Shown one piece after another: positions 23,964 through 50,104 of a stretch of 64,000 nt of DNA. The notes under the pieces were generated by a model. The model worked only from the letters and a program-made list of their open reading frames with translations, was not told the DNA's origin and searched no databases. Origin of the DNA: Balneolaceae bacterium (lineage in GTDB: Bacteria > Bacteroidota > Rhodothermia > Balneolales > Balneolaceae); NCBI GenBank assembly GCA_017640665.1, contig JAEPQE010000001.1, positions 62,001-126,000 of the forward strand. The letters run 5' to 3'. Each line of letters opens with the position of its first letter. The stretch's first letter is position 1. Both the position numbers and the translations under genes were made by a program.

Positions 23964-26900
23964 TCAAAACATTCTCGCCAGAACAACCGTCTCCTTAAAT
24001 GTCCGGTCACTTCCGTTTGCACTGTTGTAGGCTTCGAACAGGACGATGTAGATTCCAACCCTGTTTTTCTTTCGGTCGTCGGTAAGTCCATCCCATGTTA
24101 GTGAACCCATAAATCCTGCTTGAGCGTTATTAGCCAGTTCCCGAACCTGTCTACCATAACGATCAAAGATTCGAACCCTGAGCAGATAATCCGGAGCATC
24201 CAATGTGTAGTTGATGAAAAGATTATCTTCAAAGCCATCGTCATCGGGGGAAAAAGGATTGGGGCTAAAGCTGATTCCAGCTGACTCTGGTGGAGCTCCC
24301 GGATCCTGAAAAATGGTGTTTCTGAAATTCGGAGTCCCGCCACTCACATGGGTACTTGAACTCCAGTTACTCTCGTCATTACTTTCACCCAACGGATTAA
24401 TTCGTTCGAGTGCGATGCCATCGGTATCGAACACATTTGGGTTTTGCCAGCTTTCATCAAAAAACACAGAGTCGATGGTTGCACCGGTACTGTCTGCCAG
24501 GTAAATGGCGTCATCGGATGAAGCCAGACTCAAACTGGAACGGTCGACCCGCATAGTAAACTGATCTGATTCTCCCTCAAGCCCAAAATATTCTGCGGTT
24601 TTACTTTCAGAAAAAACAGATGCTTCATCTTCAGAATAAATCAAAAAATACCCACCGGGCTCAATCCATTTATACTGAGTTGAAACCGGCTCAATGCTTT
24701 GGAATTCATTTTCTTCATCGGGTGCATCATGCAAAAAGATCCCTTCTAACGAAATTGCTGCGTTAGACCGATTGTACAGTTCCAGATACTCAGTTTGATC
24801 CGGAAGGTTGTCTTCTGGATCTGCAAGGGGATCGTACATGATCTCGTTGATGATTACATCTCCTTTCGAAGCAGGAGAAGCAATCGGAGAGGATATTTCA
24901 GAAGCTACATTTCCTTTTATGTCCAAAATATCAGAAACAGTAACATCAATATTTGTTGCGTTGAGACTCTTCGGAAGAGCCACTGGAGCAGGAGTCCATT
25001 CAACAATTACTTGATTACCATTCAGCTCTAAAAGTTCAACATCAATCCCATTAACATTAATTATCGTTTGAGTAGAAGTGCGAACGAACTCTGAGAATAC
25101 AATTTGTACAACTGAGTCAATCTGAGTAGCAAATATTATTTCAGGCGGAGTTACATCCTCTTCAAATACAGAACTTTGGGCTCCCGCACTGAATCCACCT
25201 TGAGCAGTGCTTGATGCCCAGTTAGAAGCGTCGTTTGAAGCCCGGCCCGGATCTTTTCGTTCTAAAGAAACTCCCGGGCTATCTCCTCCCCAACTAGCCT
25301 GATAAAACAGGCTGTCAATGGTTATTCCTTCTGCATTTTTTATGATTACCCCATCCCCACTGTCATTCAAAGAAGGAAAATCAGACAGATAGATGGCATT
25401 ACTCAACGTGTTAGCAAAATCCTCCCGATCTGTTAAGATCAGATATTCCCCGGCAGGGAGAAAAATACCCTCAGAGATTTCCGCATCGTTATTACCAGCA
25501 TCAATGAGTTCCCAGCCTGATAAATCAAAATTCTTATTTGTGGGATTGTACAATTCAACAAACTCCGGGGATAACTCATCTTCTCTTCGATAGAGGATTT
25601 CGTTGATAACCACCTCATTCTTAAGTGCGGGAGTAATCTCGAAGTACACAGCTTCAACCAAATCCGAGTCATTGATATTCCCAAAAATATCACGCTGATT
25701 GAGTACTTCGACTGTAAGTTTTTCCCCATCAGAAAGTGCCTGTGCTAATGTGATTGACACTGAATCCTGATTTAGTACTATTTCTGAAGCGGTTTGAGTT
25801 GGGGTAATATTATAGTTCTCCAGATCCAGCGCAAAAGATTCGACTAAAGTCTCGCTGAAATTTAAAATGACAGTTTCGGCATTTATAATAAGAACGCTTT
25901 CCACGAAAGGAGCGACGGTATCCGGCTCGATAGCATTTTGTTGGCCTGGTGTGGCTAATTCAGGAGAAGGACTGTCGCCCCAATTCGCCTGAAATATCCC
26001 TGAAACCTCAACGCTTCTGCGTTCTAAAGAGATTTCATCGCCACCCCATGAACTTGAGTAAGTTAGCGAGTCAATCAAGACTCCATCCGAGTCCCGTAAG
26101 ACAAGATCGTCTGTTGAGTTATTCAGAGCCGGAAAACCTGAAACTCTTAGCAATGGGGTTCCGGGAAAATTTTCTACAATGGTACTATCAGGTGCCAGTA
26201 GTACAAATTGATCTGGTGAAAGCGCGTAGGTTTCAAAAGTTATTGTTCTTCGATTTCCGGAATTATCATTGAACGTCCAATTTTGAAGATTAAACGTTTT
26301 ATTAGTGTGGTTGTAGAGCTCAACAAATTCAGAATAAGCATCGGCTGGATCATACATAAATTCATTAAGAGCCACCTCTCCTTCAAGCGCGGTATCGAAT
26401 TCACGAAATTCAAAATCAAAAGTGAGTTCGTTTGCCGTATTCCCAAAGAAATCTTCCTGATTTTCGATTGTAAGTGAATAGCTCTCCCCATTTCCATCAC
26501 CCTGAAAAGCAGCATTGAAAGCAATGATTACAGTATCAGGTTCGACCAAATCAACGCTTTGAATACCGGGTAACGAAAAATCATTCCCGGAGCCTGCAAC
26601 CAACTCGTAATTGATTAATGTTTCCGCAGGTATTTGTGCAATCGCCTCCGTAAATATAATCTCCAGTGTACTGTCATTCAGGAACTCAAAAGACTCGATA
26701 TCCGGAGGAGTGGTATCTGGTTCGATATCGTTTGTTCTACCCGGTGTACCAATTTTATCGGGAGAATCTCCCCAGTTTGCCTGAAGGGTAGATGCCGCAT
26801 TTTGAGTTCTTCGTTCTAAAGCTACATCTACTCCGCCCCAGTCCGGATTATATTCTAAGGAATCGATCAGCGTTCCTGTACCATCAAACACCCTGATCTG

Positions 26901-28124
26901 ATCGGTGGTATTATTAAGTGCTGGAAGAGATACATCTACATATTGACCAGCACCAAAATTCGTAGTAAGGGCTTCAGGATCTGATGTAACCACCAAAAAA
27001 CTATCCGGAAGAATGACCAAATCCTCCTCAGAAATTGTTGCTAGAGAGTTGTTATCTCCTATTTCCCAATCTTTAAGGTTTAGATATTTGGAACTGGTAT
27101 TCCGCAGTTCAATATATTCGGGTAAATCTGTTCCGGGGGGAGGGTCTTTGAGAAATTCATTAATGATGATGTCTCCCGTTTCAAACTCGTCAAACACAAA
27201 AAAAATAAAACTGGTATCGGTAAGTACGGTGTCGTTAACCGATGATTCTATTCCTGAAACACTCAATTGGTTTTCTCCACCGGGAATTATATCTGTGAAA
27301 GTAATTCTAAGCGCATTACTTCCCTGATTTGAAAACGATTGGGGATTGATACTGTCATTCAGTTCGAAATCTGTGGTGGCTACTGAAGAGAAATCAATAT
27401 CCCGAGAAAAACTGAAATCGATTTCCGTTTCACTAAATACTGAGAAAGAATCCACTAATAGTGGATCTACAATTACGGGAGGGGGATTTACTTTAAAATC
27501 GAAATAATAATCATCCACCCGGGTGCTTGAATAGGTTACCAGTACCCCGAAGAATGCCGAACTGGTATAAGTATTGTCGTTTGCAGTGTTACCTGAATTT
27601 TTTAGCTCCCCGTTGTATCCTTCACCCACTTCTATGCTCCAATTCCCGGATGCATCGCGTGTGACTTTAATTCGGTAAGACCCTCCGGAATCAAATATCG
27701 TTGTATCCTCCAAAACTGTGGTTTGTGCCCCCGCATCTAAGCGGACAATCTTGAAAACATCATCGCCGGTCTGACCAATTCGAACCGCATAACCATTAAC
27801 AGCTCCGGATAAATCCGAAATATCGCTCATCAATACGATCTCAGCTTTATTCCCATTGGATGGAGCTGTTCCATCAATACGAACAAAGAACTCCCACTCT
27901 CCTACTGTGTTCGATGATGGCGTAGACAGATATGAACTCGCTGCCTCATTATCATCAAGCCGAAGTACATTATTCCCATCAAGATCGAAAATCACAAAAT
28001 TACTGTCTGCACCACTCCAGACTGGATTAGCTGTGAAATCACCATCTGAGAAATCATCCTCAAAATTCTGAGCGAAAAGTGACGCCGATATTAATAAAAG
28101 ACTTATAGTAAACAGGAATTTCAT
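23964..28124 (-). CDS. Giant secreted protein with four lamin-tail domains
   Basis: This is a secreted protein of about 1386 residues. After a signal peptide (1-18, ending SLFAQ) comes a LamG/glucanase-like sandwich (about 20-195). Four lamin-tail domains begin at about 320 (NEFLKDPPPG), 587 (NEFMYDPADAY), 841 (NEILYRRED) and 1090 (NEIMYDPLADP). Each has an (E)YIELRN or EFVELYN strand and a GG(D)..SLERR ending. Bacterial Ig-like modules (PPDIESFEF...) lie between them. The C-terminus (from about 1285, SFSPNPFSPDDDG) matches the FlgD-like/gliding-motility T9SS tail. It is probably a surface adhesin or matrix protein. The start is set at MKFLFTIS (28124); the frame extends 96 bases upstream through the leader. 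Confidence 0.85.
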   Translation of the reverse strand: MKFLFTISLLLISASLFAQNFEDDFSDGDFTANPVWSGADSNFVIFDLDGNNVLRLDDNEAASSYLSTPSSNTVGEWEFFVRIDGTAPSNGNKAEIVLMSDISDLSGAVNGYAVRIGQTGDDVFKIVRLDAGAQTTVLEDTTIFDSGGSYRIKVTRDASGNWSIEVGEGYNGELKNSGNTANDNTYTSSAFFGVLVTYSSTRVDDYYFDFKVNPPPVIVDPLLVDSFSVFSETEIDFSFSRDIDFSSVATTDFELNDSINPQSFSNQGSNALRITFTDIIPGGENQLSVSGIESSVNDTVLTDTSFIFFVFDEFETGDIIINEFLKDPPPGTDLPEYIELRNTSSKYLNLKDWEIGDNNSLATISEEDLVILPDSFLVVTSDPEALTTNFGAGQYVDVSLPALNNTTDQIRVFDGTGTLIDSLEYNPDWGGVDVALERRTQNAASTLQANWGDSPDKIGTPGRTNDIEPDTTPPDIESFEFLNDSTLEIIFTEAIAQIPAETLINYELVAGSGNDFSLPGIQSVDLVEPDTVIIAFNAAFQGDGNGESYSLTIENQEDFFGNTANELTFDFEFREFDTALEGEVALNEFMYDPADAYSEFVELYNHTNKTFNLQNWTFNDNSGNRRTITFETYALSPDQFVLLAPDSTIVENFPGTPLLRVSGFPALNNSTDDLVLRDSDGVLIDSLTYSSSWGGDEISLERRSVEVSGIFQANWGDSPSPELATPGQQNAIEPDTVAPFVESVLIINAETVILNFSETLVESFALDLENYNITPTQTASEIVLNQDSVSITLAQALSDGEKLTVEVLNQRDIFGNINDSDLVEAVYFEITPALKNEVVINEILYRREDELSPEFVELYNPTNKNFDLSGWELIDAGNNDAEISEGIFLPAGEYLILTDREDFANTLSNAIYLSDFPSLNDSGDGVIIKNAEGITIDSLFYQASWGGDSPGVSLERKDPGRASNDASNWASSTAQGGFSAGAQSSVFEEDVTPPEIIFATQIDSVVQIVFSEFVRTSTQTIINVNGIDVELLELNGNQVIVEWTPAPVALPKSLNATNIDVTVSDILDIKGNVASEISSPIASPASKGDVIINEIMYDPLADPEDNLPDQTEYLELYNRSNAAISLEGIFLHDAPDEENEFQSIEPVSTQYKWIEPGGYFLIYSEDEASVFSESKTAEYFGLEGESDQFTMRVDRSSLSLASSDDAIYLADSTGATIDSVFFDESWQNPNVFDTDGIALERINPLGESNDESNWSSSTHVSGGTPNFRNTIFQDPGAPPESAGISFSPNPFSPDDDGFEDNLFINYTLDAPDYLLRVRIFDRYGRQVRELANNAQAGFMGSLTWDGLTDDRKKNRVGIYIVLFEAYNSANGSDRTFKETVVLARMF

Positions 28125-28193
28125 GGACTCAGGATAGTTTACCCGAACGACTTTATCAACTTGTGAACTAAGTCTTAATGATGAATTAACTAC

Positions 28194-28229
28194 AAAAAAA
28201 TAGGGTAAAAGGTTATCCACCTTTTACCC
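28194..28229 (-). terminator. Intrinsic terminator inside the leader of the lamin-tail gene
   Basis: On the minus strand GGGTAAAAGG pairs perfectly with CCTTTTACCC (10 bp, 7-base loop), then TA and seven T residues (28194-28200). It faces the lamin-tail gene and lies about 70 bases before its start codon, a position expected of an attenuator. Confidence 0.7.
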
Positions 28230-28321
28230 CTGGAAGGACATTGAGAGTATTAACTCTCAAGGCAATGATTGTCGTCTCTATGCTTGGTAAGTCAGACCGA
28301 TTAGAGAAGAACTCCTTACAG
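28194..28321 (-). ncRNA. Candidate structured RNA or leader with multi-branch fold
   Basis: Read on the minus strand, four helices nest consistently. P1 closes with CTGTAAGGA (28313-28321) against TCCTTCCAG (28230-28238), 8 of 9 pairs. P2 pairs TCTCTA (28302-28307) with TAGAGA (28275-28280). P3 is the perfect hairpin TTGAGAGT-TAAT-ACTCTCAA (28241-28260). A terminator hairpin (28203-28229) plus seven U residues follows. It lies 70 bases upstream of the lamin-tail gene start. It could be a stand-alone small RNA or a transcription-attenuating leader of that gene. I recognise no known riboswitch or RNA family. No convincing promoter upstream was found, which keeps confidence low. Confidence 0.4.
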
Positions 28322-28385
28322 ATTTTTTGTACTTTTTTTGTGAAATTTTTAATACGACTTAACTCACTAATAAACAGGACCTGGA

Positions 28386-28772
28386 ATGCGAAGTTTACCT
28401 TTCTACATGGATGATTTAAACGGCGGCTTTATGAAATTAGAAGGAATTCTGCGCGTTGAGAAGGAAAAATTGTACCTCGAATTCCAAAAAACAGACGCTA
28501 TTCTGGAAACTTATAAGTCTGACGTCAAGGAGATAGAGATCGATATCTCGGAAATATCGATGATGGAATACAAGAAAGGGCTGTTCTCAAGTAAGTTGAC
28601 GATCCACGCAAAACGGGCTATTACTTTTCAGGATTTACCCGGAAACGGATTAACAGAACGGGTACTGAAAGTGAAAAAGAAGCATCGCGAAATTGCAGCG
28701 TCTATTTCTTCTAATATAAATCTTGCTCTCTCCGAACGTCGTTTGAATGAATTAAATGGAGATGATGAATGA
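28386..28772 (+). CDS. Small protein of unknown function, PH-like paralogue A
   Basis: This 128-residue soluble protein has no signal peptide or membrane segment. The predicted pattern is a run of short beta strands and a C-terminal helix (IAASISSNINLALSERRLNEL), as in a bacterial PH-like fold; this fold call is an inference. The next gene is a clear paralogue sharing KGLF..KL.I and the LALSERRL ending. Its stop codon overlaps that start by 4 bases (ATGA). It is the first gene of a short plus-strand set ending with a membrane protein. Confidence 0.7.
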   Translation: MRSLPFYMDDLNGGFMKLEGILRVEKEKLYLEFQKTDAILETYKSDVKEIEIDISEISMMEYKKGLFSSKLTIHAKRAITFQDLPGNGLTERVLKVKKKHREIAASISSNINLALSERRLNELNGDDE

Positions 28773-49975: not shown

Positions 49976-50084
49976 TCTCCCTCCAGAGGGAAGATCGTAG
50001 TGGCACCAAACTCAGTACTTGTGCACCTTCCTCTCCCTGTTTTACACTCAAACGTATGAACCTGTCCCTCTCCGAAGAGGGACA
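49976..50084. repeat. Palindromic intergenic repeat (TCCCTCT...AGAGGGA)
   Basis: It starts with TCCCTCCAGAGGGA (49978-49991) and ends with the perfect hairpin TGTCCCTCT-CCGA-AGAGGGACA (50063-50084). A further copy of CTTCCTCTCCCTG lies in the middle. It fills the 236-base gap between aroA and the TPR gene (49869-50104). The last hairpin may help end the TPR operon but lacks a T-tract. Confidence 0.5.
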
Positions 50085-50104
50085 TTCTTTCTGGTCATTT
50101 CTAA

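What the first reader, a model, noticed from the sequence alone, without database searches (positions are those of the whole stretch)
28194..28321. Unrecognised multi-branched RNA with its own terminator ahead of a giant surface protein gene
Seen: on the minus strand a closing helix (8 of 9 pairs), two internal hairpins (one a perfect 8-bp stem) and a 10-bp terminator followed by seven U residues, all within 130 bases, 70 bases before the lamin-tail gene. Known: such stem-junction-terminator layouts are typical of attenuating leaders, riboswitches and some small RNAs. Inference: either a stand-alone small RNA or an attenuator controlling the large lamin-tail protein and the lipoprotein behind it. 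I cannot assign it to any RNA family.
Basis: partly seen in the sequence, partly recalled or inferred. Interest (0 to 1): 0.62.

Follow-up and report, generated by a model that had tools for sequence, protein, structure and literature searches.

The report
Small RNA in a DNA-uptake regulon

Summary
The first ~37 bases (28321-28285) are a promoter, not RNA: TGTAAGGA-N16-TCTNAC occurs exactly 15 times in this genome (0 in the reversed control), ahead of comEC, comM, recA, ssb, radC, a recN operon, small nucleases and this RNA. The same site follows the stop codon of a divergent ECF sigma gene across the family, and the site changed in parallel at both places in one genus. The transcript is therefore ~91 nt (about 28285-28194): variable 5' part, covarying hairpin, invariant GUCCUU linker, covarying terminator with U run. 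It is found, usually once, in 46 (strict) to 61 (lenient) of 92 Balneolaceae genomes. Its first internal hairpin is not conserved. The lamin-tail gene has its own promoter after the terminator and is absent beside the RNA in two genomes, so the RNA is not its leader. Best reading: a stand-alone sigma-dependent sRNA of a competence/DNA-repair regulon, acting in trans through its linker. Transcription, sigma recognition and targets are not shown; target searches failed.

The parts
28321..28340 (-). A-rich stretch upstream of the -35 box (AAAAAAAGTACAAAAAATC), possible UP-like element
   Evidence: conserved in most homologous loci; A-rich tracts also precede many other sites of the motif. Role inferred.
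   Evidence: first 7 bases invariant in 45 loci; the same two-box motif 15 times in the genome with 0 in the reversed control
28291..28296 (-). -10 box TCTGAC (consensus TCTNAC), 16 bases after the -35 box
   Evidence: fixed spacing in all homologues; changes to TCATAC in genus g19, both here and behind the sigma gene
28284..28288 (-). probable transcription start of the RNA
   Evidence: inferred: start codons cluster 3-6 bases after the -10 box (13 of 50 motif sites with a usable ATG, none at 7-13), which points to the start point of such transcripts
28194..28285 (-). small RNA gene, about 91 nt
   Evidence: covariance models R1/R2 match in 46 (E up to 0.01) to 61 (E up to 0.1) of 92 family genomes, none convincing outside the family
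28241..28260 (-). hairpin 1, TTGAGAGT-TAAT-ACTCTCAA
   Evidence: 7 of 8 pairs with changes on both sides, 56 such cells against 14 +/- 4 in shuffles, on an alignment not fitted to structure
28231..28240 (-). linker UGUCCUUCCA between the two hairpins; proposed seed for base pairing
   Evidence: GUCCUU identical in all 45 aligned loci; hairpins on both sides in 44 of 45 single-sequence folds, though fully unpaired in only 14
28194..28230 (-). intrinsic terminator, 12-bp stem GGGGTAAAAGGT/ACCTTTTACCCT, loop GGATA, then A and seven U
   Evidence: 29 distinct stems of 10-14 bp among 45 loci; covariation; predicted by the scan
28131..28159 (-). separate promoter of the lamin-tail gene, TTGATA-N17-TATCCT
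   Evidence: scan hit 9 of 12; TA[TC][TC]CT lies 4-9 bases before the ATG in 15 of 40 loci against 0.7 expected in shuffles
23964..28124 (-). lamin-tail surface protein gene (ATG at 28124-28122), separate transcription unit, not part of the RNA gene
   Evidence: ORF; start codon placed by homologues; absent next to the RNA in G032 and G088
28386..28772 (+). divergent conserved gene upstream of the promoter, function not assigned; neighbour only
   Evidence: ORF; divergent neighbour in most homologous loci

Best explanation
It is the gene of a stand-alone small RNA of about 91 nt, transcribed from an ECF-sigma promoter (TGTAAGGA-N16-TCTGAC) that also drives the DNA-uptake, recombination and repair genes of Balneolaceae, and ended by its own terminator 70 bases before the independently transcribed lamin-tail gene. 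When the sigma factor is active, the RNA is made together with ComEC, ComM, RecA, SSB and RadC. It most likely acts in trans as an antisense regulator: the invariant GUCCUU linker, presented between two hairpins, pairs with purine-rich stretches of other mRNAs and represses them, giving the sigma factor, which by itself only activates, a repressing arm. Shown by comparison: that it is conserved, its conserved boundaries, two helices, the promoter motif and the genes that share it. Inferred: that it is transcribed, the exact start, and which sigma reads it. Speculative: antisense mode and targets.
For: Single full-length copy in the genome, homologues at the same place in most of the family; all 28 matches among 296 genomes drawn from the phylum lie in this family. 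Promoter motif: 15 exact sites in G000, 0 in the control, about 10-30 per genome in the rich genera; downstream genes identified by Pfam as ComM type (Mg_chelatase/ChlI), ComEC (Competence), RadC, 23S_rRNA_IVP, DUF559, GIY-YIG, and read as RecA, SSB and RecN from their sequences. ECF sigma: ortholog L115 is above the TIGR02937 cut-off, the family profile hits RpoE of entry 2q1z; the motif follows the sigma stop codon within about 20 bases in 28 of 30 loci, 24 by pattern and 4 as near matches by eye, and in further genera. In g19 the -10 box changed to TCATAC both at the RNA and behind the sigma gene. Covariation of hairpin 1 and terminator.
Against: No transcript evidence. The perfect 8-mer seed complement GGAAGGAC before ATG is rarer than its reversed control in five genomes. 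Pairing of the linker with regulon leaders is not better than chance (p 0.06; 67 of 200 shuffled linkers as good). No Hfq in the genome. The linker is partly paired in many single-sequence folds and has diverged in some extra copies in G060 and in parts of g19. Genera g2, g3, g8, g9, g16 and g20 have the sigma-site module but gave no RNA match.
Confidence: 0.7

Rival explanations
1. It is an attenuating leader of the lamin-tail gene: transcription starts at the ECF promoter and usually stops at the terminator, and read-through in some condition makes the surface protein.
For: The lamin-tail gene follows the RNA in at least 40 of 45 loci, and stays next to it where the divergent gene is not seen (L162, L163).
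Against: A separate promoter lies after the terminator, with the ATG 4-9 bases behind its -10 box in many loci. In G032 and G088 the RNA, promoter and terminator are intact although another gene follows. No conserved alternative structure that would undo the terminator was seen; the 5' part is variable. The wider neighbourhood (asd, divergent gene, RNA, lamin-tail gene) is syntenic, which explains the neighbourship.
Confidence: 0.1
2. The RNA acts through a protein (sequestering or scaffolding it) rather than by base pairing; the GUCCUU linker is a protein-binding site.
For: Linker invariance without detectable mRNA partners; conserved terminator loop UGGA/UUGA; no Hfq.
Against: No candidate protein was identified; the two modes cannot be told apart with these data.
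Confidence: 0.15
3. It encodes a tiny peptide (AUG UCC UUC CAG GGG UAA) or is only the leader of a lost gene.
For: In the window and several relatives the linker reads as a 5-codon frame.
Against: The AUG is absent in 12 of 45 loci (column 113) and the frame loses its stop in g6, while the RNA structure is kept.
Confidence: 0.03

Closest known systems
sigma-E-dependent sRNAs of Escherichia coli (MicA, RybB, MicL); from own knowledge
   Same: short RNA with its own terminator behind an ECF-sigma promoter of a regulon whose other members are protein genes; would give the sigma factor a repressing arm
   Different: no Rfam match; no Hfq here; the regulon is DNA uptake and repair, not envelope stress; targets unknown
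C-rich-motif sRNAs of Firmicutes (RsaE/RoxS, FsrA); from own knowledge
   Same: invariant pyrimidine-rich stretch suited to ribosome-binding sites
   Different: different promoter control and architecture; predicted seed matches before ATG are not enriched
competence regulons (ComX/SigX of streptococci, Sxy-CRP of gammaproteobacteria); from own knowledge
   Same: comEC, comM, ssb, radC, recA type genes in one regulon
   Different: driven here by a putative ECF sigma with a two-box promoter; includes an sRNA and several small mobile-looking nuclease genes
LexA/SOS regulon of Balneolaeota (PMC7739468)
   Same: recA belongs to both
   Different: LexA motif there is TTACACATATTTTWTACATA with translesion polymerases; the motif here is TGTAAGGA-N16-TCTNAC with comEC, comM, ssb, radC

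Membership tests
any described Rfam family | score above a family's gathering threshold | tested here: not met
   no hit at gathering level in the interval; best lenient hits all far below threshold, e.g. aspC 18.6 against 100 bits
trans-encoded bacterial sRNA | own promoter and own terminator, separate from the genes it neighbours | tested here: met
   promoter motif and terminator conserved in 45 loci; by sequence only, transcription not tested
trans-encoded bacterial sRNA | conserved secondary structure | tested here: met
   covariation of hairpin 1 and terminator
trans-encoded bacterial sRNA | base-pairs with target mRNAs | tested here: inconclusive
   invariant linker, but no enriched targets
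Hfq-dependent sRNA | Hfq in the organism | tested here: not met
   no PF17209 match in the genome; control genomes ring
riboswitch or attenuator of the downstream gene | downstream gene depends on the same transcript | tested here: not met
   separate promoter after the terminator and RNA kept without that gene in G032, G088
ECF-sigma regulon member | promoter shared with the sigma factor's own module | tested here: met
   same motif behind the sigma gene, co-varying in g19
ECF-sigma regulon member | transcription by that sigma factor | not testable with these tools
   needs in vitro transcription or a sigma deletion

The most novel reading that the evidence does not exclude
Balneolaceae control natural transformation and recombinational repair by a dedicated ECF sigma factor with a TPR membrane partner, and this regulon contains its own small RNA, a regulatory RNA built into an ECF-driven competence programme that limits or times competence.
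Probability: 0.38. Interest if true: 0.8.

Novelty: new member of a known kind. Interest (0 to 1): 0.62.

Why it matters
That makes two points directly testable in cultured Balneola or Gracilimonas relatives: what switches on DNA uptake there, and whether an RNA restrains it. An ECF sigma factor as the master of competence would be unusual compared with the known regulators.

Tried and rejected
Closing helix P1: present in the sequence but its 5' arm is the -35 box; no compensatory change. First internal hairpin: not conserved. Rfam membership: none. Dispersed repeat: only the promoter part recurs. Attenuator of the lamin-tail gene and tiny peptide: see rivals. Seed targets at ribosome-binding sites: GGAAGGAC-N1-14-ATG not enriched in five genomes. 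Pairing of the linker with regulon leaders: not significant. Viral occurrence: none. One genome-contig hit in a candidate division FCPU426 record lacks the terminator structure and looks like chance. My first alignment mixed strands and was discarded. Literature: no paper found that joins ECF sigma, competence and Balneolaceae; the library holds only open-licence papers.

Full report
1. What is in the sequence. The stretch folds better than all 200 shuffles (z -3.9). The DNA occurs once at full length in its own genome. There is no Rfam match at gathering level in this interval, and weak ones are far below threshold.

2. Relatives. A DNA search in 58 relatives found full-length or long partial homologues in about a dozen Balneolaceae genomes, 74-92% identical over most of the length. 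A covariance model of the transcribed part only (A4) found the RNA in 46 of 92 family genomes at E up to 0.01, and a second model from 45 sequences in 61 of 92 at E up to 0.1, the weakest of these being uncertain. In 296 genomes drawn from the phylum all 28 matches fell in this family; the single match in another family of the order is weak, E 0.08. It is normally single-copy; G060 has five matches, of which most have the promoter. Named records include Balneola sp. EhC07, Gracilimonas mengyeensis and several Balneolaceae MAGs.

3. The 5' part is a promoter. Pieces of the first 45 bases also turned up alone, ahead of ssb and comM genes. The motif TGTAAGGA-N16-TCTNAC has 15 exact sites in the genome and none in the reversed-pattern control; genomes of the rich genera have about 10-30, controls 0-1. 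All 15 point at a gene or the RNA, one of them (L071) only at what looks like a remnant. The proteins were identified by Pfam as ComM-type Mg-chelatase, ComEC, RadC, 23S_rRNA_IVP, DUF559 and GIY-YIG; RecA, SSB and RecN were recognised from their sequences. In other genomes the same motif precedes radC, recA, ssb, RecQ-like helicases and integron-integrase-like recombinases. In 13 of 50 motif sites with a usable ATG the ATG lies 3-6 bases behind the -10 box and none lies at 7-13, so these messages are probably leaderless and start about 5-6 bases after the motif. By the same rule the RNA starts near 28285.

4. The sigma factor. One site lies between an ECF-sigma-like gene and a TPR membrane protein. 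The sigma protein is divergent: Pfam misses it at 0.001, NCBIfam ECF models match it (TIGR02989, 4.7e-10), an ortholog exceeds the TIGR02937 cut-off, and its profile finds RpoE of PDB entry 2q1z. In 28 of 30 sigma loci the site sits within about 20 bases behind the sigma stop codon, 24 by pattern and 4 as near matches read by eye, and it does so in further genera. In genus g19 the -10 box behind the sigma gene reads TCATAC in most genomes looked at, and the RNA promoters of g19 show the same change. This co-variation is the best evidence that this sigma factor reads the RNA promoter. It remains an inference; no biochemistry was possible.

5. Structure of the RNA. On a MAFFT alignment not fitted to a structure (A5), hairpin 1 has 56 cells changed on both sides against 14 +/- 4 in shuffles, 0 of 500 as high, and beats all slid versions. 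On the model-fitted alignment both helices are strongly supported (128 against 40 +/- 6); that alignment leans to the structure. The terminator shows 29 distinct stems, all 10-14 bp, with a T-rich tail. The linker GUCCUU is identical in all 45 loci. Single-sequence folds place a hairpin on both sides of it in 44 of 45, but leave it fully unpaired in only 14. Its first internal hairpin is at the level of slid controls.

6. Not a leader of the lamin-tail gene. The synteny is wide (asd, divergent gene, RNA, lamin-tail gene), so the neighbourship is weak evidence. A separate promoter follows the terminator: TTGATA-N17-TATCCT here, and TA[TC][TC]CT 4-9 bases before the ATG in 15 of 40 loci against 0.7 expected. 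In G032 and G088 a different gene follows, and the RNA with promoter, hairpin and terminator is kept.

7. How it probably works. An RNA with its own ECF promoter and terminator, an invariant pyrimidine-rich linker and no conserved coding frame fits a trans-acting regulator. The sigma-E sRNAs of E. coli give the model of a repressing arm (own knowledge). Direct tests for targets failed: no enrichment of the perfect seed complement at start codons, no significant pairing with regulon leaders, no Hfq. The function is therefore the weakest step.

8. Known or new. A LexA regulon is described for this phylum with another motif and mostly translesion genes (PMC7739468); the regulon here is distinct, with recA in both. 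I found no paper on a competence regulator or sRNA in Balneolaceae, within an open-licence library. As a kind, sigma-dependent sRNAs are known; this is a new family, in an unusual regulon.

Noticed in passing
G000:C1:1024568-1025209 (-), locus L065: Divergent ECF sigma gene followed by its own promoter motif and a TPR/membrane partner; candidate master regulator of DNA uptake and repair in the family.
   Followed up: partly
loci L068-L070, L072, L075, L076, L079, L083 (own genome), L044, L046, L049, L050 (relatives): Small GIY-YIG, DUF559, REP-transposase-like and integron-integrase-like genes, often multi-copy, carry the same promoter, many with the ATG 4-6 bases behind it: mobile-looking genes that ride on the competence promoter.
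   Followed up: partly
loci L091-L112, between the promoter site and the TPR gene: A conserved hairpin (TCAGAATGTAT..ATACATTCTGA and variants) in the leader of the TPR gene behind the sigma gene.
   Followed up: no
L220 (G002:C1:2445840-2445936): A second RNA-like element with the same linker ATGTCCTTCCAGG and its own terminator but without the ECF promoter.
   Followed up: no
L223-L227 (G060): Five paralogous matches of the RNA in one genome, some with a changed linker (ACATTCC).
   Followed up: partly
window 50028-50085 (-): Match to Rfam whalefall-1 (RF01762), 37.7 bits against a gathering score of 37.
   Followed up: no
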